Shown here: positions 37,090 through 45,993 of the stretch, piece after piece
Numbering within the stretch: position 1 is the stretch's first letter
Layout: the number at the start of each line of letters is the position of its first letter
Origin: Streptomyces sp. YIM 121038
Lineage (GTDB): Bacteria > Actinomycetota > Actinomycetes > Streptomycetales > Streptomycetaceae
Assembly (NCBI RefSeq): GCF_006088715.1
Contig: NZ_CP030771.1
Location: 2,728,001-2,792,000 of the forward strand
Length of the DNA: 64,000 bases
Direction: 5' to 3'
The notes under the pieces: generated by a model
Seen by the model: only the letters and a program-made list of their open reading frames with translations
Told to the model about the DNA's origin: nothing
Databases searched by the model: none
Made by a program: the position numbers and the translations under genes

Positions 37090-37821
37090 TCATCCTACGG
37101 CCGTCCCGAAGAGGCTGCCCAGGGCGTACGTCACACCCGCCGCCGCCCCACCGAGCACGAGCTGCCGCAGCCCGCTGAACCACCACGAACGGGCGGTCAC
37201 CTTGGCGACGACGGCGCCGCACGCGAACAGGCCGACGAGCGCGAGCAGCACCGCGGGCCACAGCGCACTGGCGCCCAGGAGGTACGGCAGCACGGGCAGG
37301 AGCGCGCCGAGGGCGAACGAGCCGAAGGACGAGACCGCCGCCACGACCGGCGAGGGCAGGTCGCCCGGGTCGATGCCGAGCTCCTCGCGGGCGTGGATCT
37401 CCAGGGCCTGCTCGGGGTCCTTCGACAGCTGCCGCGCCACCTCGCGGGCGAGCGCGGGCTCGACACCGCGGGACTCGTAGAGCGCGGCCAGCTCCTGCTC
37501 CTCGTCCTTGGGGTGCTTGCGCAACTCGCGGCGCTCCACGTCCAGTTCGGCCTGCACCAGCTCGCGCTGCGAGGCGACGGACGTGTACTCGCCTGCGGCC
37601 ATGGAGAACGCCCCGGCCGCGAGCCCGGAGAGCCCGGTGATCACGATGGTCTGCTGCGACACGGCCCCGCCCGCGACGCCCGTCATCAGGGCGAGGTTGG
37701 ACACCAGGCCGTCCATGGCGCCGAAGACGGCCGGGCGCAGCCAGCCGCCGTTGACGTCACGGTGGGTGTGGTTGTCCCGGTGCGCCTCGTGCAGTGTCGC
37801 TTCGGTCTCGATGATCGCCAT
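37090..37821 (-). CDS. VIT1/CCC1-family membrane protein (putative iron/manganese transporter)
   Basis: A 243-residue membrane protein of the vacuolar iron transporter family. WLRPAVFGAMDGLVSNLALMTG is the family's first helix signature, followed by AGAFSMAAGEYTSVASQRE; a charged cytosolic middle region with many Glu residues (DVERRELRKHPKDEEQE) resembles the metal-binding domain of VIT1. Three further helices are at the C-terminus. It probably moves Fe2+ or Mn2+ out of the cytosol. GAGGGGG eight bases upstream of the ATG at 37821 sets the start. Divergent from the ADP-ribosylglycohydrolase operon. Confidence 0.9.
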   Translation of the reverse strand: MAIIETEATLHEAHRDNHTHRDVNGGWLRPAVFGAMDGLVSNLALMTGVAGGAVSQQTIVITGLSGLAAGAFSMAAGEYTSVASQRELVQAELDVERRELRKHPKDEEQELAALYESRGVEPALAREVARQLSKDPEQALEIHAREELGIDPGDLPSPVVAAVSSFGSFALGALLPVLPYLLGASALWPAVLLALVGLFACGAVVAKVTARSWWFSGLRQLVLGGAAAGVTYALGSLFGTAVG

Positions 37822-38068
37822 GGTGCGGCCCCCTCATAGTCGCGCTGAACGTTTCGACGTCGCTCTGGAATCCCGTCGGTGAAACCCCGTCGGCGATCTC
37901 GAAAGTACGCGCGAAAAATCGCTCCCGCCAGCAAGGAAGGCCGTACTTACCTGCGAAAACACACCCCTGTGGGCCCGCGCGGGCGGCCCGCGCGGAGCCG
38001 TCGCGGACATGCCGAAGGAGTGATGCTGAGCGCCTGCGTGCTCACATGAGTGGCTCGGCGTGGCAGGG

Positions 38069-38168
38069 ATGCTCCCAGCACGACTCAGCGGCACGCAGCG
38101 GCACGCAGCGGCACGCAGAAGTACTCAGCAGCACTCAGCGGTTCTCAGTGGTTCTCAGTGGTTCTCAG
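38069..38168 (+). repeat. Ten 10-bp tandem repeats in the leader of the ADP-ribosylglycohydrolase operon
   Basis: From 38069 to 38168 every tenth base ends a unit in CAG: ATGCTCCCAG, CACGACTCAG, CGGCACGCAG three times, AAGTACTCAG, CAGCACTCAG, CGGTTCTCAG, TGGTTCTCAG twice. The array ends 18 bases before the ATG and just before the ribosome site. It occupies much of the 365-base gap 37822-38186; the remainder holds the VIT gene promoter area and an AAGTACG/CGTACTT pair but no gene. Confidence 0.85.
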
Positions 38169-38186
38169 CGCGATGGGAGGCAGGGC

Positions 38187-40442
38187 ATGGCGTCCATCGC
38201 CTGTGTTCCCCCGGTCCCGGCGCCCGACGGCGCGGGCGGCCTGCGCGAGCGGGCGCGCGGAGCGATGCTCGGGCTCGCGGTCGGCGACGCGCTCGGCGCG
38301 CCCGCCGAGAATCTGAAGCCGTCCGAGATCCGCCGCCGTTGGGGCCGCATCACCGGGTACGTCGCCGAGCGCCCCGCGGGCACGGACGACACCGAGTACG
38401 CGATCTTCTCCGGCCTGCTGCTCGCCCGGCACGGCTCGGCCCTCACCGTCGCGCACGTCGAGCACGCCTGGCACCGGTGGATCGCCGACCTGGACGAAGG
38501 CCCCTTCCGGGGCGCCGGGTTCAGCGAACGCGGCACCCTGGAGAACCTGCGCAGGGGCCTGGCCGCCCCCATCTCCGCCCAGCACCGGCACGCCTGGAGC
38601 GACGGCCTCGCGATGCGGGCCGCGCCCTTCGGCGTCTTCGCCGCGGGGTGCCCCGCGGAGGCGGCCCGTCTGGTCGCCGTCGACGGCACCGTCAGCCACG
38701 ACGGCGAGGGCATCCACGGCGGCCGGGCCGTCGCGGCGGGCGTCGCGGCGGCGATGGCCGGGGCCCCGGTGGAGTCGGTGGTCGCGGCGGCCCTGTCCGT
38801 CATCCCGTACGACTCCTGGACCGCGCGCTCCCTGCGCCGCGCCGTCGCCGTGGCCCACCGGGGCGAACGCGCGGTCCGCTCGGCGGTCGTCATCGGCGGC
38901 TACCCCTGGACGGACCTGGCCCCCGAGGCGGTGGGCCTCGCCTTCGGCGCGTACGCGGCCGCCGAGGGCGACTTCGCGGGATCCGTCCTCACCGCGGTCA
39001 ACATGGGCCGCGACGCGGACACGACCGCGGCGGTCGCGGGCGCCCTGGCGGGCGCCACCTGCGGCGCCGCCGCCATCCCCCCGGAATGGTCCCGGGCGAT
39101 CGGCCCGGTAAGGGGCACCTGCCTCCCTTCCATGCGGGGCCACCACGTACTGGAGGTGGCGGAGCTCCTAGCGTCCGTCTCCGCTGTGGGCAATCGTCCC
39201 GCAGGGCGAGTGGGGTCTCCCCTGCTCGAGCGAAGCCGAGAGCTTGGGGAAGGGTGGGCACAGCCCGAGGTGCCGAGCAACCGTGCAACCAAGCCCCGGG
39301 GCCCGGGGCGCAGCCCCGGCAAGCGGGCCCTGGACGGAGCCCAGGTCGAGGGCCTCCTGCTGGGCCTGGCCGCAGGCGACGCGGCCGGTTGGCCATCGGC
39401 CCGGCACAGGGCGACCCGCATGCCCGACTGGACCCGCCGCCTCACCCGCGAACTGGACACCTTCGCCGAGCACAACGCCACCACCACCCTCCCCGTCCCC
39501 ATCGCCCTCAACCAGCCCCCGGAACCCCTGCGCCTCGGCCCCTCGGACGACGCCGAATGGGCCGCGCTCACCGCCGAATCCGTCCTGCGCGCGGCGGACG
39601 GCACCCTCGACCCCGCCCTCACCAGGGACCGCCGCACCCGCGCCACCCTCGCCCTGTCCTGGAACACCCTCGCCAGCGAGGTCGCCGCCGCCGCGGCCCG
39701 CGCCCCGGAGGTGGAGTCCGCCGTCCTGCCCCTGCGCGCCCGCATCTCCGTGCGCGCGGGCCTGGGCAACCTGGCCGCGGGCCTCACCCCGCCCGCCACC
39801 GGCCACGACAACCCGCACTTCTTCGACGACGCGGCCTGCGTACGCGCCTGCGTCCTCGCCCTCGTGCACCCCGGCGACCCCGAACGGGCCGCGGGGCTCG
39901 CCGAGTTCGACGCCCGCTACACGCAGGACGGCGACGGCGTGCACGGCGCCCGCGCGATGGCCGCGGCGGTCGCGGCCGCCCTCAGCGGCGCCGGACCCGA
40001 CGCCGCGGTGGCCGCCGCCCTCGCCCAGCTCCCCGAGCACACCGAGATCGGGCGCAACGCCCGGCACGCCGTGAAGCTCGCCCGCACCTGCGCGCCCGCC
40101 GCCGACGCCACGTTCGCCCTGGTCCCGCTCCTGGAGCACGAGATCGTCGACCACGTCTACAGCTACGGCATCGCCGCCGCCGAGACCGTCCCGGTCGCCC
40201 TGGCCCTGGCCGTCGCGGCCCGCGGACGGGTCCGCGAGGCGGTGCCCGCCGCCGCCTGTCTGTCGCGCGTCGCGGACTCGGCGCCCGCGCTCGCCGGGGC
40301 CCTGACCGGCGTCCTGGGCACGGCCGCCGCGATCCCCGACAGCTGGCGCGCGTCCTGCCGCACCCTGTCGGGCTGTGCCCTGCCCCGCCTCGCGGGTACC
40401 GACCTGGTGGAGCTGGCCGGACAGCTGACCCGTACGAACTGA
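38187..40442 (+). CDS. Two-domain ADP-ribosylglycohydrolase-family protein
   Basis: A 751-residue protein with two DraG/ARH domains. Domain 1 (residues 15-332) has the Mg-binding motifs GTDDTEY and MGRDADTTAAVAGAL, so it should be able to cleave an ADP-ribosyl or ribosyl bond. Residues 333-378 are an unconserved linker encoded by an intergenic-type repeat. Domain 2 (from about 380) keeps LLLGLAAGDAAG but has SDDAEW and LSRVADSAPA in place of the metal motifs, with one Asp lost, so it may be inactive. GGGAGG six bases upstream supports the ATG at 38187; upstream in-frame codons lie in the tandem array. First of six coupled genes. Confidence 0.88.
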   Translation: MASIACVPPVPAPDGAGGLRERARGAMLGLAVGDALGAPAENLKPSEIRRRWGRITGYVAERPAGTDDTEYAIFSGLLLARHGSALTVAHVEHAWHRWIADLDEGPFRGAGFSERGTLENLRRGLAAPISAQHRHAWSDGLAMRAAPFGVFAAGCPAEAARLVAVDGTVSHDGEGIHGGRAVAAGVAAAMAGAPVESVVAAALSVIPYDSWTARSLRRAVAVAHRGERAVRSAVVIGGYPWTDLAPEAVGLAFGAYAAAEGDFAGSVLTAVNMGRDADTTAAVAGALAGATCGAAAIPPEWSRAIGPVRGTCLPSMRGHHVLEVAELLASVSAVGNRPAGRVGSPLLERSRELGEGWAQPEVPSNRATKPRGPGRSPGKRALDGAQVEGLLLGLAAGDAAGWPSARHRATRMPDWTRRLTRELDTFAEHNATTTLPVPIALNQPPEPLRLGPSDDAEWAALTAESVLRAADGTLDPALTRDRRTRATLALSWNTLASEVAAAAARAPEVESAVLPLRARISVRAGLGNLAAGLTPPATGHDNPHFFDDAACVRACVLALVHPGDPERAAGLAEFDARYTQDGDGVHGARAMAAAVAAALSGAGPDAAVAAALAQLPEHTEIGRNARHAVKLARTCAPAADATFALVPLLEHEIVDHVYSYGIAAAETVPVALALAVAARGRVREAVPAAACLSRVADSAPALAGALTGVLGTAAAIPDSWRASCRTLSGCALPRLAGTDLVELAGQLTRTN
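39184..39330 (+). repeat. Intergenic-type repeat (family B) translated inside an ADP-ribosylglycohydrolase gene
   Basis: CTGTGGGCAATCGTCCCGCA, GGGGTCTCCCC, CTCGAGCGAAGCCGAG, GGGTGGGCACAG, then CCCCGGGGCCCGGGGCGCAGCCCCGG. This hairpin-rich sequence is of a kind I associate with Streptomyces intergenic repeats, from memory. Here it is read through in frame as residues 333-380, exactly between the two domains. Confidence 0.65.
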
Positions 40443-40465
40443 CCACCCAGGAGGGCGATCCAGAC

Positions 40466-41629
40466 ATGACACCACCGAACAGGACGCCGCTCGCGGACCG
40501 TGTCACCGGCGCCCTCGTGGGCGCGGCCGTCGGCGACGCGCTCGGCGGCCCCGTGGAGGGCTACTCCCCCGAGCAGATCGCGGACCGGCACGGCGGCCCG
40601 GTCCACGGCGTCGTCGGCCCCTGGCACGGCGACGAATGGCGCACCGCCCGCCCCGTCGCCCCGTACCACAAGGGCGACGGACACGTCACCGACGACACCT
40701 TGATGACGCACGCGCTCGTCCGCGTGTACGCCGCCGTACGCGACCACTTGGACGCGTACGCGATCGCCGACCACCTGGTCCCCGACCTGATGACGAACCC
40801 GCGCTGGATCCCGGAGCTCGAAGCCGAGGCCCTGCCCCTGCACCGCCTCTTCCTCGCCGAGAAGTGGCTCGTCACCCGGCTGCACTACGGCCACGTGGAC
40901 CCCCGCGAGGCGGGCACCGGCAACATCGTCAACTGCGGCGCGGCGATGTACATGGCGCCGGTCGGCCTGGTCAACGCCGCCCACCCCGAGGCCGCGTACG
41001 CCGAGGCCCTGGACATGGCGGGCGCGCACCAGTCGTCGTACGGACGGGAGGCGGCGGGCGTCTTCGCGGCGGCCGTGGCGGCGGCCTGCGCCCCCGGCGC
41101 CACGCCCACCACGGTGATCGACACCTGTCTGGCCCTCGCGAAGGACGGCACCCGGGCGGCGATCGAGGCGGTGGTGGACGCGGCGGCCCGCCACCGCGCG
41201 TACGAGACGGCGCTGCGCCCGCTGCGCGCGGCGGTCGCCCCCTTCGACACCGTCGGCCCCGACTACCGCGCGCCGTCCCTGGGCGCCCGCCGCCCCTCGC
41301 GGCTGCACGCCATCGAGGAACTCCCCGTCGCCCTCGGCATGCTGCTGATCGGCGACGGCGACTACCGCGCCACCGTGCTCGGCTCGGTGAACTACGGCCG
41401 CGACTGCGACTCGATCGCCACGATGAGCGGCGCGCTCGCGGGCGCCCTGCGCGGCGAGGCCGCCGTCCCGCCCGACTGGTCGAAGCGGGTGGCCGAGGCG
41501 AGCCGTCTGGACCTGCACGCCCCGGCCCGCGCCCTGACGGCGGTCGCCGAGGAGGTCTTCGCCAAGGACCTGGCCCGCCGCCGCGCCCACGAGCACGCGT
41601 TCACGTCCCTGACGGGCGGCACCCCCTGA
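40466..41629 (+). CDS. ADP-ribosylglycohydrolase-family protein, 387 aa
   Basis: A single-domain DraG/ARH protein with the family opening GALVGAAVGDALGGPVEGY, the metal motif HVTDDTLMTHAL and the second metal motif NYGRDCDSIATMSGALAG, where Cys and Ser stand in for the usual Ala/Thr. All the Asp ligands are kept, so it is probably active on an ADP-ribosyl, O-acetyl-ADP-ribose or ribosyl substrate. Cytosolic. AGGAGGGCG precedes the ATG at 40466, 23 bases after the first gene; the end overlaps the next start by one base. Confidence 0.93.
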   Translation: MTPPNRTPLADRVTGALVGAAVGDALGGPVEGYSPEQIADRHGGPVHGVVGPWHGDEWRTARPVAPYHKGDGHVTDDTLMTHALVRVYAAVRDHLDAYAIADHLVPDLMTNPRWIPELEAEALPLHRLFLAEKWLVTRLHYGHVDPREAGTGNIVNCGAAMYMAPVGLVNAAHPEAAYAEALDMAGAHQSSYGREAAGVFAAAVAAACAPGATPTTVIDTCLALAKDGTRAAIEAVVDAAARHRAYETALRPLRAAVAPFDTVGPDYRAPSLGARRPSRLHAIEELPVALGMLLIGDGDYRATVLGSVNYGRDCDSIATMSGALAGALRGEAAVPPDWSKRVAEASRLDLHAPARALTAVAEEVFAKDLARRRAHEHAFTSLTGGTP

Positions 41630-43044
41630 TGCGCCTCACCTGGCTCCAGGCCGAGGACCTCCTCACCCACGAACTCCGCCAGGCGGAGGAGGAGGGCCGC
41701 GACGTCACCGCGGCCCGGGCCCGCTGGCTGGCCGCGGGCGGCGACCCGACCCCGCCCCACTCGGGCGCGTCCCCCCGTCCGGCCCCACCCCGCCTGCGGG
41801 CCCTGGCGGAAGACCTCTTGGCGGAACTGGACGGCGCGCAAGCGGACATCCAGCCCGTCCGGCGTGTGAGGACGAGCGCGCAGCGCGATGAAGCGGGGTG
41901 CCAGGGGCGGCAGCCCCTGGTTTCGGGAAGGGGCGGGCCAGGGGCGCCCCCGCGAGGGCACCGCGCCCGCGTCCACGCGGCCTGGCTCGGCAGAGCCGCG
42001 GGCTGCCTCCTGGGCAAACCCGTGGAGAAGCTCCCCCGGCACGCCATCCGCGCCCTCGCCGAAGCCGCAGGCAACTGGCCCCTGACCACCTGGTTCACCG
42101 CCCGGGGCGTCCCGCCCGAGCTCCTCGCCCGGCACCCCTGGAACCGCCGCTCCGCCCCCACCTCCCTGGCCGAGAACATCGACGGCATGCCGGAGGACGA
42201 CGACCTCAACTACCCGCTCCTCAACCTGCTGCTCCTGCGCCGCCACGGCCCCGGCTTCACCACGGCGGACGTGGCCGCGCTCTGGCTCGACGAACTCCCC
42301 GCCGCCCGTACCTTCACCGCCGAGCGCGTCGCGTACCGCAACCTCCTCAACGGCGTCGTACCGCCCCGCACGGCCCGGCACCGCAACCCGTTCCGCGAGT
42401 GGATCGGCGCCCTGATCCGCGCCGACGTGCACGGCTGGACCCACCCGGGCGACCCCGCGGCGGCCGCCGAGCAGGCCCGGCGGGACGCGTGTCTGACCCA
42501 CACCGGCAACGGCGTGTACGGCGCGATGTTCGCGGCGGCCACCATCGCCCGGGCCGCGTCCGGGAGCGGCGACGTGCACCACTGCCTGGCTGCGGGTCTG
42601 ACGGTGGTTCCGCCGGAGTCCCGCCTCGCCCGCGCGGTCGGGCACGGCATCGAACTGGCCCGTACGACACGCCGCTTCGACGACGTCGCCGACGCCCTGC
42701 ACACCGCGTACGGCCACTACCACTGGGTCCACGTCGTGCCGAACGCGGCCCTGCTCGCCGCCGCCCTCACCCACGCCGACGGCGACTTCACCGGCTCCAT
42801 CACGCGCGTGGTCTCCGGCGGCTGGGACACGGACTCCAACGGCGCGACGGCCGGTTCGGTCGCGGGCCTGCTCGCCGGGCACCCGGACGCGCTCCCGGCC
42901 CGCTGGACCGCCCCGCTGAAGAACCGCCTCGCCACGTCCGTCGGCGCCTTCGACGGCGTCGGCTTCGACGAACTGGCCGATCTGACCACGGAACTGACGC
43001 ACCATCACCAGCACCCTCACCCCGTAGAGGAGACGTCCCCCTGA
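41629..43044 (+). CDS. ADP-ribosylglycohydrolase-family protein with N-terminal extension, 471 aa
   Basis: Residues 1-74 form a charged helical segment (WLQAEDLLTHELRQAEEEGRD) not usual in the family. Residues 75-107 are encoded by a reversed family A repeat. The catalytic domain starts at about 110 (VHAAWLGRAAGCLLGKPVEKL) with metal motifs MPEDDDLNYPLL and GGWDTDSNGATAGSVAG, so it looks active; DDD replaces DDT. ATG at 41629 overlaps the previous stop by one base (TGATG). Third hydrolase of the operon, and the most divergent. Confidence 0.9.
   Translation: MRLTWLQAEDLLTHELRQAEEEGRDVTAARARWLAAGGDPTPPHSGASPRPAPPRLRALAEDLLAELDGAQADIQPVRRVRTSAQRDEAGCQGRQPLVSGRGGPGAPPRGHRARVHAAWLGRAAGCLLGKPVEKLPRHAIRALAEAAGNWPLTTWFTARGVPPELLARHPWNRRSAPTSLAENIDGMPEDDDLNYPLLNLLLLRRHGPGFTTADVAALWLDELPAARTFTAERVAYRNLLNGVVPPRTARHRNPFREWIGALIRADVHGWTHPGDPAAAAEQARRDACLTHTGNGVYGAMFAAATIARAASGSGDVHHCLAAGLTVVPPESRLARAVGHGIELARTTRRFDDVADALHTAYGHYHWVHVVPNAALLAAALTHADGDFTGSITRVVSGGWDTDSNGATAGSVAGLLAGHPDALPARWTAPLKNRLATSVGAFDGVGFDELADLTTELTHHHQHPHPVEETSP
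41851..41948. repeat. Family A intergenic repeat translated in frame
   Basis: About 98 bp starting CAGCCCGTCCGGCGTGTGAG and ending GGGGCGGGCCAGGGGCGCC match the reverse complement of 13905-14003 closely (roughly 80% by eye). In this gene it codes for residues 75-107, between the N-terminal helix and the catalytic domain. Confidence 0.8.
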
Positions 43045-43976
43045 TGGCCCCCCACATCGTCGTCCTGGGCAGCACCAACATGGACCTGGTCGCCTACGTG
43101 CCCGAGGCCCCGCGGCGCGGCGAGACCGTCACCGGCCGCGCGTTCCGCACCTTCCCCGGCGGCAAGGGCGCCAACCAGGCCGTCGCCGCGGCCCGCGCGG
43201 GCGCCACGGTCTCGATGGTCGGCGCGGTCGGCACCGACGCCTTCGGCACCCAGCTGCGCACGGCCCTTGAGCACTCGGGCGTGGACACCGACCTGCTGCG
43301 CACCGTGGAGGGCACGACCGGCACCGCGCACATCGTCGTCGACGACGACGGCGGCAACGCCATCGTCGTCGTGCCGGGCGCCAACGCCACCCTGACCGCC
43401 CTGACCCACGGCGACGAGGCGCTCATCACCTCGGCCGATCTGCTCCTGCTCCAGCTGGAGGTCCCGCTCGACGGCGTCGTCGCCGCCGCGCGCCACGCCC
43501 GCGAGCACGGTGTGCGCACCGTCCTCACCCCGGCTCCCGCGCAACCCGTCCCGCCCGAACTCCTCGACGCCACCGACCTGTTGGTCCCCAACGAGCACGA
43601 GGCCGCCGCCCTCACCGGGGCCGCGGACCCGCACGCGGCGGCCCACGCGCTCCTCGACCGGGTCCCGGAGGTCGTCGTCACGCTCGGCGCCGAGGGCAGC
43701 CTGTACGCGGCGCGCGGCGCCGAACCCGTCACGGTGCCCGCGCCCCGGGTCACGGCCGTGGACACCACGGGCGCGGGCGACACCTTCGTGGGCGCCCTCG
43801 CGGTGGCGCTCGGCGAGGGCAGGCCCATGCCGGCCGCGCTCGCCTGGGCCACGGCGGCCGCCGCGCTGTCCGTACGGCGGCCGGGCGCGGCCGCGTCCAT
43901 GCCCTACCGCGCGGAGATCGACGCGGAGATCGACGCGGGGTCCGGCGCCCGGGCCGAAGCGGCGGCGGACCGGTGA
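43044..43976 (+). CDS. rbsK: Ribokinase (PfkB family)
   Basis: A 310-residue sugar kinase. The substrate loop FPGGKGANQAVAAARAG and the catalytic DTTGAGDTFVGALAVAL (base Asp in GAGD) are diagnostic; LLVPNEHEAAALTG is the ATP-side element. The GSTNMDLV start and GGKGANQA favour ribokinase over fructokinase. It would phosphorylate ribose set free by the three glycohydrolases. ATG at 43044 shares one base with the previous stop and the end overlaps the CoA-transferase by four bases. The C-terminal 20 residues, with repeated EIDAEIDAG, are extra. Confidence 0.93.
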   Translation: MAPHIVVLGSTNMDLVAYVPEAPRRGETVTGRAFRTFPGGKGANQAVAAARAGATVSMVGAVGTDAFGTQLRTALEHSGVDTDLLRTVEGTTGTAHIVVDDDGGNAIVVVPGANATLTALTHGDEALITSADLLLLQLEVPLDGVVAAARHAREHGVRTVLTPAPAQPVPPELLDATDLLVPNEHEAAALTGAADPHAAAHALLDRVPEVVVTLGAEGSLYAARGAEPVTVPAPRVTAVDTTGAGDTFVGALAVALGEGRPMPAALAWATAAAALSVRRPGAAASMPYRAEIDAEIDAGSGARAEAAADR

Positions 43977-45163
43977 CGCGGCCCCCGCTGGACGGCCTGC
44001 GCGTCGTCGACCTCGCCACCCTCTTCGCGGGGCCCCTGGCCGCCACCTTCCTCGGCGACTTCGGCGCGGACGTCATCAAGGTCGAGCACCCCACGCGCCC
44101 CGACCCGTCCCGGGGCCACGGCCCGGCGAAGGACGGCGTCGGCCTGTGGTGGAAGCTGCTCGGCCGCAACAAGCGCACGATGACGCTCGACCTGTCGACG
44201 CCCGGCGGCCGGGCCACCCTGCTGCGCCTGGCCGCCGACGCGGACGTGCTCGTGGAGAACTTCCGCCCCGGCACCCTGGAGAAGTGGGACCTGGGCTGGG
44301 AGGAGCTGAGCGCGGCCAACCCGCGCCTGGTCCTGGCCCGCGTCACGGGCTTCGGGCAGTTCGGGCCGTACGCGCGCCGCCCCGGCTTCGGCACCCTCGC
44401 CGAGGCGATGAGCGGCTTCGCCGCGGTGACCGGCGAGCCCGGCGGGCCGCCCACGCTGCCGCCGTTCGGCCTCGCGGACTCCATCGCGGGGCTCGCCACG
44501 GCGTACGCGGTGATGACGGCCCTCGCGGCCCGCGAGCGCACGGGCCGGGGCCAGGTCGTCGACATGGCGATCATCGAGCCGATCCTCACGGTCCTCGGCC
44601 CGCAGCCGCTCTGGTACGACCAGCTGGGCCACGTACAGCCGCGCACCGGCAACCGCTCGACGAACAACGCGCCCCGCAACACCTACCGCACGGCCGACGG
44701 CGGCTGGGTCGCGGTGTCCACGTCGGCCCAGTCGATCGCGGAACGCGTCCTGCGCTTGGTGGGCCGCCCCGAGCTGACCGACGAGCCGTGGTTCGCCACG
44801 GGCTCCGGCCGCGCCGCGCACGCCGACGTCCTCGACGAGGCCGTCGGCTCCTGGATCGCCCGGCACACCCGCGCCGAGGTCGTCGAGGCCTTCGAGAAGG
44901 CGGAGGCGGCGGTGGCCCCGGTCCAGGACGTACGGGACGTGATGACGGACCCGCAGTACGCGGCCCTGGGCACCCTCACCACGGTCCCCGATCCGGAGCT
45001 CGGCCCGCTGCGCATGCAGAACGTCCTGTTCCGCCTCTCCGAGACACCCGGCGCGATCCGCTGGGCGGGCCGCCCGCACGGCGCCGACACCGACGAGATC
45101 CTCACCGGGCTCGGCCTGACGGCCGCGGAGATCGCTTCGCTGCGCACGGCGGGCGCCCTGTGA
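43973..45163 (+). CDS. Class III (CaiB/BaiF) CoA-transferase
   Basis: A 396-residue enzyme that moves CoA to a carboxylic acid. The family opening LDGLRVVDLATLFAGPLAAT, the DVIKVEHP motif and the catalytic Asp in FGLADSIAGLA are present, as is VENFRPGTLEKW. Start GTG 43973 overlaps ribokinase as GTGA; the next gene overlaps likewise. With the downstream CitE-type lyase it suggests an acid is activated as a CoA thioester and then cleaved, as in citramalate or malate-type breakdown; the acid cannot be told from sequence. Confidence 0.94.
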   Translation: MTRPPLDGLRVVDLATLFAGPLAATFLGDFGADVIKVEHPTRPDPSRGHGPAKDGVGLWWKLLGRNKRTMTLDLSTPGGRATLLRLAADADVLVENFRPGTLEKWDLGWEELSAANPRLVLARVTGFGQFGPYARRPGFGTLAEAMSGFAAVTGEPGGPPTLPPFGLADSIAGLATAYAVMTALAARERTGRGQVVDMAIIEPILTVLGPQPLWYDQLGHVQPRTGNRSTNNAPRNTYRTADGGWVAVSTSAQSIAERVLRLVGRPELTDEPWFATGSGRAAHADVLDEAVGSWIARHTRAEVVEAFEKAEAAVAPVQDVRDVMTDPQYAALGTLTTVPDPELGPLRMQNVLFRLSETPGAIRWAGRPHGADTDEILTGLGLTAAEIASLRTAGAL

Positions 45164-45993
45164 GACCGCATCCGCTGACCTGGCTCTACGTCCCCGGCGA
45201 CCGGCCCGAGGTGGTGGCCAAGGCGCTGGTGGCGGGCGCGGACGTGGTGATCGTCGACCTGGAGGACGCGGTGGCTTCCGACCGCAAGGCATACGCCCGC
45301 GCGGCCACCGCCGAGCTGCTCGCCGAGCCGGGCCCCGTACCGGTCCACGTCCGCGTGAACGCCCTCGGCACTCCCCCGTCCGACGCCGATCTGGCGGCGC
45401 TCGCCCCGCTGCCCGGCCTCGCGGGCCTGCGGCTGCCCAAGGTCGCCTCGGCCGCCGACGTGATCCGCACCGCCGAGCGGGCCGCTCCCCGGGACGGCGG
45501 CGCCCCCGCCCTGTACGCCCTGCTTGAGTCGGCCCTGGGCGTGGAGCGGGCCTTCGCCGTCGCGACCGCCCATCCGGCGCTGCGCGGTGTGTCCATCGGC
45601 GAGGCGGACCTCCGCGCCGACCTCGGCGTACGGGACGAGGCGGGTCTGGACTGGTGCCGCTCCCGCGTGGTCGTGGCCGCCCGGGCGGCCGGACTGCCGC
45701 CGCCCGCCCAGTCGGTCTACCCCGACGTCCGCGACCTGGACGGCCTCACGGCGTCCTGCGCCCGCGGCCGCGCCCTGGGGCTGCTGGGCCGCGCGGCGAT
45801 CCACCCGCGCCAGCTGCCGGTGATCGAGCGCGCCTATCTGCCGACACCGGAGGAGGTCGAGCGGGCGGAGGATGTCCTCAAGGCGGCGGCCGCGGAACAG
45901 GGGGCGCAGGCGCTCCCCGACGGCCGCTTCGTGGACCGCGCGGTGGTGGAGCAGGCCCACCGGACGCTCGCCCTGTCCCGCCGCACGCCGTAG
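45160..45993 (+). CDS. CitE-type HpcH/HpaI aldolase / CoA-ester lyase
   Basis: A 277-residue TIM-barrel enzyme of the citrate lyase beta / malyl-CoA or citramalyl-CoA lyase family. TWLYVPGDRPEVVAKAL opens the protein, VVIVDLEDAVA follows, and the Mg ligands are Glu in LYALLESALGVE and Asp in GEADLRADLG. AIHPRQLPVI is the CoA-side motif. GTG 45160 overlaps the CoA-transferase stop by four bases; last gene of the operon, ending 11 bases from the convergent lgt gene. Probably splits an acyl-CoA into acetyl- or propionyl-CoA and a keto acid. Confidence 0.93.
   Translation: MRPHPLTWLYVPGDRPEVVAKALVAGADVVIVDLEDAVASDRKAYARAATAELLAEPGPVPVHVRVNALGTPPSDADLAALAPLPGLAGLRLPKVASAADVIRTAERAAPRDGGAPALYALLESALGVERAFAVATAHPALRGVSIGEADLRADLGVRDEAGLDWCRSRVVVAARAAGLPPPAQSVYPDVRDLDGLTASCARGRALGLLGRAAIHPRQLPVIERAYLPTPEEVERAEDVLKAAAAEQGAQALPDGRFVDRAVVEQAHRTLALSRRTP

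What the first reader, a model, noticed from the sequence alone, without database searches (positions are those of the whole stretch)
38187..45993. Coupled operon of three ADP-ribosylglycohydrolase-family proteins, ribokinase, CoA-transferase and CitE lyase
Six genes with 1-4 base overlaps (only the first gap is 23 bases) combine hydrolysis of ribosyl bonds, ribose phosphorylation and CoA-dependent cleavage of an acid. Seen: motifs and coupling. Known: DraG/ARH enzymes cut ADP-ribosyl or ribosyl bonds; CaiB plus CitE break down beta-hydroxy acids via CoA esters. Inferred: a pathway for a ribosylated or ADP-ribosylated metabolite yielding ribose-5-phosphate plus acyl-CoA pieces. I know no described pathway with this set.
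Basis: partly seen in the sequence, partly recalled or inferred. Interest (0 to 1): 0.72.

Follow-up and report, generated by a model that had tools for sequence, protein, structure and literature searches.

The report
Probable sugar-conjugate breakdown operon in Streptomyces
Genes usually labelled as enzymes that undo ADP-ribosylation sit in a conserved operon that, in related bacteria, also carries a sugar importer and its repressor, so they may well digest an imported sugar conjugate rather than edit ADP-ribose tags.

Summary
In detail: six co-directional genes at 38187-45993 (double-domain ARH, ARH, ARH, ribokinase, CaiB-type CoA-transferase, CitE-type lyase), with a 23-base gap then 1-, 1-, 4- and 4-base overlaps. 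In 61 genomes of the window's genus, ARH gene A3 and the lyase co-occur (both 42, one only 2, neither 17) and are adjacent in 41 of 42. In 25 genomes of other Actinomycetes genera with full-length A3 (19 from one family), the CoA genes lie in the same cluster in 24 and a MalF/MalG/solute-binding importer in 24 (one contig not assessable), usually headed by a LacI repressor with a GGAAACGTTTCC operator. Streptomyces locus L199 has repressor and importer at the window's site; the window's lineage probably lost them. Best reading: an operon that splits an imported glycoside with ARH-fold hydrolases, phosphorylates the sugar and degrades the released beta-hydroxy acid as its CoA ester. No substrate is known, nothing was assayed, ADP-ribose involvement is unsupported and ribose only suggested.

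The parts
38187..40442 (+). A1: tandem ARH protein = A1a (N-terminal) fused to A1b (C-terminal); two separate ORFs in most relatives
   Evidence: PF03747 two stretches; A1a keeps TDDT and DxDT metal motifs in at least 95% of 89 rows; A1b has V, L or T at the first Asp of the second motif in 93 of 93 readable rows; A1 called as two ORFs in 58 of 62 spanning Streptomyces loci
40466..41629 (+). A2: ARH-fold hydrolase
   Evidence: PF03747 E 3e-49; TDDT and DCDS metal motifs, their Asp, Thr and Ser in at least 95% of 103 rows
41629..43044 (+). A3: ARH-fold hydrolase with a conserved ~110-residue N-terminal extension
   Evidence: PF03747 E 4.3e-48; EDDD and DTDS motifs in at least 95% of 107 rows; no PDB sequence match at E<=0.01; N-terminal extension conserved among 50 aligned homologues
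43044..43976 (+). RK: ribokinase (PfkB family), absent in some relatives
   Evidence: TIGR02152 326.9 bits, cut-off 299.65; missing in 8 of 43 A3-bearing genomes of the genus
43973..45163 (+). CT: class III (CaiB/BaiF) CoA-transferase
   Evidence: PF02515 E 1.8e-126; Asp of its ADS motif aligned with an Asp in the three solved CoA-transferases shown (catalytic role recalled)
45160..45993 (+). CE: CitE-type beta-hydroxyacyl-CoA lyase
   Evidence: PF03328; best NCBIfam RipC 153 bits, below cut-off 375; aligns over residues 7-269 with 8khl and 7-268 with 6aq4 (Rv2498c)
37822..38186 (.). Intergenic region before A1; no copy of the LacI operator seen in relatives
   Evidence: 0 matches to GGAAACGTTTCC with up to 2 mismatches in the whole window, where 0.98 would be expected by chance, so the absence is not itself significant; none within 3 mismatches in 37782-38247 on the + strand

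Best explanation
The operon is the intracellular half of a carbohydrate-conjugate catabolic system. Proposed steps: (1) a LacI-type repressor releases the operon when the substrate or a product binds [inferred from the conserved operator; both missing at the window locus]. (2) A MalF/MalG/solute-binding ABC importer brings in a small glycoside [shown as a conserved linked gene set in relatives; substrate inferred from family only; a related importer lies elsewhere in the window genome]. (3) In some relatives an alpha-amylase-fold protein with a formylglycine-generating-enzyme-like domain trims it [predicted fold; cytosolic location inferred]. (4) The ARH-fold enzymes A1a/A1b, A2 and A3 hydrolyse one or more glycosidic bonds to a ribose-like sugar [inferred]. 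(5) Ribokinase phosphorylates the sugar [family shown, reaction inferred; dispensable]. (6) The released beta-hydroxy acid is activated from a CoA donor by CT and (7) cleaved by CE into acetyl-CoA plus an oxo acid, citramalate-, malate- or HMG-like acids being candidates from the family [inferred]. Protein or DNA ADP-ribosylation is not required.
Against: No substrate is identified and no step is assayed. The importer/A3 association inside the genus is weak (31/11/9/10, p 0.08): 11 A3-bearing genomes show no importer at the threshold and 9 importer-bearing ones no full A3. RK is missing from 8 of 43, so ribose may not be the sugar. L121 shows no A1 or RK in the 14 kb fetched. G121 has ARHs, LacI and importer without CT, CE or RK beside them. 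The amylase-type barrel is shared with non-enzymes such as CD98hc in the same list. A1b lacks a metal ligand. No sugar- or ADP-ribose-binding residues were tested, and A3 could not be folded.
Confidence: 0.6

Rival explanations
1. Same importer-fed catabolic operon, but the sugar is not ribose: the ARH-fold enzymes are general glycosidases and the ribokinase is an accessory (or acts on another pentose).
For: RK not recognised in 16 of 62 spanning loci (one of these has an unlabelled ORF in its place) and missing in 8 of 43 A3-bearing genomes of the genus; L119, L121 and L128 lack it; the binding protein's PDB matches are assorted sugar binders, among them an arabino-oligosaccharide binder.
Against: When present RK is always next to A3 (35 of 35), is a ribokinase by one curated cut-off, and RbsR models score best for the LacI protein (below cut-off). 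Genomes without it may use another ribokinase (not tested).
Confidence: 0.2
2. The ARH proteins reverse protein, nucleic-acid or small-molecule ADP-ribosylation, and the CoA genes are physical neighbours with a separate role.
For: Family name and intact metal motifs in A1a, A2, A3; published lists treat the homologues as ADP-ribosyl hydrolases (passages of PMC9411070 and PMC5087735).
Against: Linkage to CT/CE and importer over several families; conserved operator of a LacI regulator; SCO2028 and SCO2030 inactive on U-ADP-ribose (PMC13036486; one substrate only; orthology to SCO numbers recalled, not tested); scores far below the DraG equivalog cut-off (at most 71.7 vs 337).
Confidence: 0.1
3. 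Salvage of an ADP-ribose- or nucleoside-derived metabolite (NAD, modified nucleoside) with a dicarboxylic side chain.
For: Ribosyl-hydrolase family plus ribokinase plus CoA activation would fit chemically (families).
Against: Importer is of the MalF/MalG/family-1 binding protein type, not what is usual for nucleosides (recalled); a protein with an amylase-type barrel is part of the cluster in 16 of 25 genomes of other genera.
Confidence: 0.1

Closest known systems
E. coli yegTUV (GgaR/YegW target)
   Same: Transporter plus predicted ARH-family protein (YegU) plus putative sugar kinase (YegV) in one repressed operon (PMC10819704, passages)
   Different: Predicted nucleoside:H+ symporter and GntR-family regulator, one ARH, no CoA-transferase or lyase; the paper calls the function of the three genes unclear
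Bacteroides thetaiotaomicron ribose-utilisation (rus) locus
   Same: Ribokinases with an ARH-family protein in ribose scavenging (recalled; a search, did not list the paper)
   Different: Different phylum and transporter; no CoA-transferase or CitE-type lyase (recalled)
Itaconate/leucine acid dissimilation: CoA-transferase plus (S)-citramalyl-CoA / (R)-HMG-CoA lyase (Rv2498c, RipC)
   Same: CoA-transferase activation followed by C-C cleavage by a PF03328 lyase (PMC6689899, passages); CE aligns with Rv2498c
   Different: No hydratase seen in this cluster; CE far below the RipC cut-off (153 vs 375); linked to ARH-fold hydrolases and a sugar importer
DraG / ARH ADP-ribosyl hydrolases
   Same: PF03747 domain, acidic metal motifs
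   Different: Operon context, far below DraG and Tri1 equivalog cut-offs, A1b lacks a metal ligand

Membership tests
DraG-type ADP-ribosyl-[dinitrogen reductase] hydrolase (TIGR02662) | Curated NCBIfam score cut-off of 337 bits | tested here: not met
   A1 71.7, A2 55.1, A3 20.9 bits
ARH fold superfamily (PF03747) | Pfam gathering score of 26.2 bits | tested here: met
   A1 309.9, A2 168.7, A3 164.9 bits
ARH fold superfamily (PF03747) | Two acidic metal motifs (xDD and DxD[ST]) | tested here: met
   Met for A1a, A2, A3; not met for A1b, where the first Asp of the second motif is V, L or T; motif roles recalled
ADP-ribosyl hydrolase by activity | Hydrolysis of an ADP-ribosyl bond | not testable with these tools
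   Only published result seen: SCO2028 and SCO2030 inactive on U-ADP-ribose
Ribokinase | Curated score cut-off of TIGR02152 (299.65 bits) | tested here: met
   326.9 bits; a second ribokinase model, NF008353, is not reached (281.6 vs 341)
Itaconate C-C lyase RipC (NF038242) | Curated score cut-off of 375 bits | tested here: not met
   153.1 bits
Succinate-glutarate CoA-transferase (NF052585) | Curated score cut-off of 750 bits | tested here: not met
   242.4 bits
LacI-regulated sugar ABC catabolic operon | LacI regulator, operator and importer linked to the enzymes | tested here: not met
   Not met at the window locus, where regulator, operator and importer are missing; met in the clusters of other genera and in L198-L201
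GH13-like alpha-amylase fold (accessory FGE-like protein in relatives) | Barrel with Asp after strand 4 and Glu after strand 5 | tested here: inconclusive

The most novel reading that the evidence does not exclude
ARH-fold enzymes, known for ADP-ribosyl chemistry, form here a new class of metabolic glycosidases (several acting in series, one pair A1a/A1b working as a complex with a metal-site-defective partner) in an undescribed pathway that imports a sugar-hydroxyacid conjugate and feeds the acid into a CoA-transferase/CitE-type lyase route.
Probability: 0.4. Interest if true: 0.72.

Novelty: new variant of a known kind. Interest (0 to 1): 0.5.

Why it matters
PMC9411070 lists SCO2028-SCO2031 as four of eight DraG/ARH homologues of S. 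[quoted passage not shown] If the operon's genes are catabolic, a large share of that ARH set should leave the ADP-ribosylation inventory (4 of 8 PF03747 stretches in the window genome lie in this operon). It would also give ARH-fold enzymes a substrate class outside ADP-ribose. The LacI operator and the binding protein of the fuller clusters make the substrate findable by ordinary assays.

Tried and rejected
Rejected: chance or artefact (order conserved). Rejected: Streptomyces-only oddity (found in five other families). Rejected: CT/CE carried along by neutral neighbourhood (also linked in the rearranged L119, and in G307 CE sits 4.8 Mb from A3-RK yet both are retained). Importer/A3 co-occurrence in the genus as strong proof: p 0.08, not used as such. 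Scan of the upstream region of the remote importer (part) is unreliable because minus-strand loci were not turned; not used. Genes around the clusters that I checked gave no recurrent further acid enzyme (eight neighbours of L122, L123, L125, L155, L198 and L201, not a full survey). Rfam (gathering thresholds) and tRNA scans of the window were empty; no sigma-70-type promoter-like site, and the one terminator-like site does not exceed chance. No model of A3 and no Foldseek 'pdb' search was obtained; the VIA-align second look was. In the paper library no paper holds ADP-ribosylglycohydrolase with CoA transferase and citrate lyase, with solute-binding protein and LacI, or with Jiangella. Three hold it with ribokinase and operon (listing only, not opened), and the lists were seen as listings apart from PMC10819704. 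Subscription papers are not held.
Full report
What is there. Six genes on the + strand at 38187-45993 encode A1 (751 aa, two ARH domains), A2 (387 aa), A3 (471 aa), RK (310 aa), CT (396 aa) and CE (277 aa from GTG 45160). Families: PF03747 in A1 (two stretches), A2 and A3, PfkB in RK, CoA_transf_3 in CT, HpcH_HpaI in CE. By NCBIfam only RK passes a listed cut-off (TIGR02152 ribokinase, 326.9 vs 299.65; another ribokinase model is missed). The ARH proteins fall far short of the DraG model (71.7, 55.1, 20.9 vs 337), CE short of RipC (153 vs 375), CT short of succinate-glutarate CoA-transferase (242 vs 750). Flanks are a VIT-family gene and lgt, both on the minus strand.

Is the linkage real? Of the 62 that span VIT to lgt, 62 keep A1, A2, A3, CT and CE in this order; RK is recognised in 46. 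Median gaps A3-RK, RK-CT and CT-CE are -4. In a 61-genome sample of the genus not chosen by CE, A3 orthologues (43, one of them a contig-edge piece in G326) and CE (43 at E<=1e-60) co-occur in 42. One genome has A3 only (G305, where a 67% CE reading frame is visible in L157) and one CE only (G311, 1140 contigs, fragment of CE). Seventeen have neither. They are adjacent in 41 of 42; the exception, G307, keeps A3-RK and CE 4.8 Mb apart. G296, whose contig ends after A2 (L158), was counted as lacking A3. RK occurs in 35 of the 43 and in none of the other 18 at E<=1e-75. Fisher p-values ignore shared ancestry.

What the window does not show. A class-level sample of 296 genomes gave 55 with a match to A3. 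Of these, 23 are of the window's genus and 32 are not; 25 of the 32 have a full-length A3, in five families (f15 1, f17 3, f19 19, f25 1, f36 1). f19 is Jiangellaceae by identical or near-identical accessory proteins from named Jiangella and relatives. So the outside evidence leans on one family. I fetched the surroundings of all 25 and read them. CT and CE are in the same cluster in 24 (not in G121). Permeases and binding protein are present in 24 (in G075 across a contig break), and in the 25th (G014) the contig starts inside the cluster. LacI is present in 23; in G014 it is off the contig and in G209 the stretch ends 0.9 kb beyond the permease with no LacI called. RK is present in 22. An FGE-domain protein is present in 16 (one fused to RK in G014). 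For the low-GC locus L121 the LacI and importer calls rest on my reading of open frames, not on a profile search. The usual order is LacI-MalF-MalG-SBP-A1a-A1b-A2-A3-RK-(FGE)-CT-CE. L119 has the set without RK in another order, and L121 shows only LacI, importer, A2, A3, FGE-like, CT and CE. Profile searches on L124 confirm BPD_transp_1 permeases, SBP_bac_1 and LacI, with ribose-repressor models scoring best but far below their cut-offs.

Breadth. A phylum sample (296 genomes, query the L121 A3) gave 9 with a match at E<=1e-60: 8 of the window's genus and one 37% match outside the class. A3 relatives at about 50% identity to L121 A3 are named from Leifsonia, Rhodoglobus, Cryobacterium, Microbacterium, Micromonospora, Asanoa and Actinophytocola among others (best 120 of 5412 listed); their surroundings were not examined.

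Streptomyces history. Four loci of the genus (L198-L201) carry LacI and importer with the hydrolases and CT/CE. In L199 they sit between VIT and lgt, exactly where the window has only the enzymes. In L202 only the importer is left at that site. In a tree of A2+A3+CT the four LacI-bearing clusters are sister to the LacI-less ones, 20 loci plus the window (support values were not printed), so loss of regulator and importer in the window's lineage is the simplest reading. The window genome keeps a related importer at 7.24 Mb (permeases 65% and 59%, binding protein 48% to the Jiangella cluster; closer, 76-80, 68-72 and 61-65%, to the importers of L198-L202). Presence of this importer is only weakly associated with A3 across the genus (31/11/9/10, p 0.08), so whether it serves this pathway is open.

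Operator. Upstream of LacI, 25 of 27 regions hold GGAAACGTTTCC with at most two mismatches, 18 exactly, against 0.25 expected in order-1 resampled sequence. One of the two misses (L122) had only 46 bases to scan. The motif was found on the same data and many loci are close relatives, so the number overstates independence. L198-L201 all have it within one or two mismatches. Among 64 LacI-less Streptomyces VIT-A1 regions none has it within one mismatch and two within two. The whole window has none within two mismatches, where about one is expected by chance.

Interpretation. A repressor, a sugar-type importer, a glycosidase-fold protein, four ARH-fold domains, a sugar kinase and a CoA-transferase/lyase pair, kept together across several families and through rearrangement, read as one catabolic pathway for an imported glycoside carrying a hydroxy acid. 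The bond cleaved by each ARH, the sugar and the acid are unknown. Ribose is favoured by RK and the repressor type but weakened by the loss of RK in part of the clusters. The ADP-ribose reading is not excluded but has no support here beyond the family and its metal motifs. One published assay found SCO2028 and SCO2030 inactive on uracil-ADP-ribose (PMC13036486, passages). That the window genes are orthologues of SCO2028 onward is recalled from gene numbering and fits the papers' lists; it was not tested by sequence.

Literature. Four papers in the library hold any of SCO2028-SCO2033. I read passages of all four; the fourth has the label only in a cloning passage about SCO2038. In those passages none describes the operon, an importer cluster or the CoA genes. 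The closest described arrangement seen is E. coli yegTUV (PMC10819704, passages), itself without clear function.

Noticed in passing
window 38083-38170: Tandem 10-base repeats (CAGCGGCACG, CTCAGCGGTT) just before A1, an insert not seen in 14 aligned Streptomyces relatives.
   Followed up: partly
window about 37895-37957: Strongly conserved element upstream of the VIT gene (its minus strand reads like an AGGTWAG..GCCTT inverted motif, recalled as similar to iron-repressor boxes) in the window and 14 relatives.
   Followed up: no
L137 (G134:C1:6278000-6296000): A second ARH cluster in a Jiangella-type genome: A1a- and A1b-like, an A3-like ARH, ribokinase, LacI and importer, no CoA genes called; L133, L134 and L132 are further ARH-importer sets.
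   Followed up: partly
L163 (G217:C33:52000-71000): FGE/amylase-fold protein paralogue near a GH3 enzyme, a weakly DUF4185-like protein and a family 5 binding protein.
   Followed up: partly
L121 (G262:C5, 47% GC, 1.8 Mb genome): A very small, low-GC Actinomycetes genome (98% complete) has the core A2-A3-FGE-CT-CE with importer and regulator; the cluster of its A3 protein is listed on 112 contigs.
   Followed up: partly
L156 (G307:C1:8870000-8886000): A3 called as part of a 1144-aa reading frame next to RK, with CE 4.8 Mb away.
   Followed up: no
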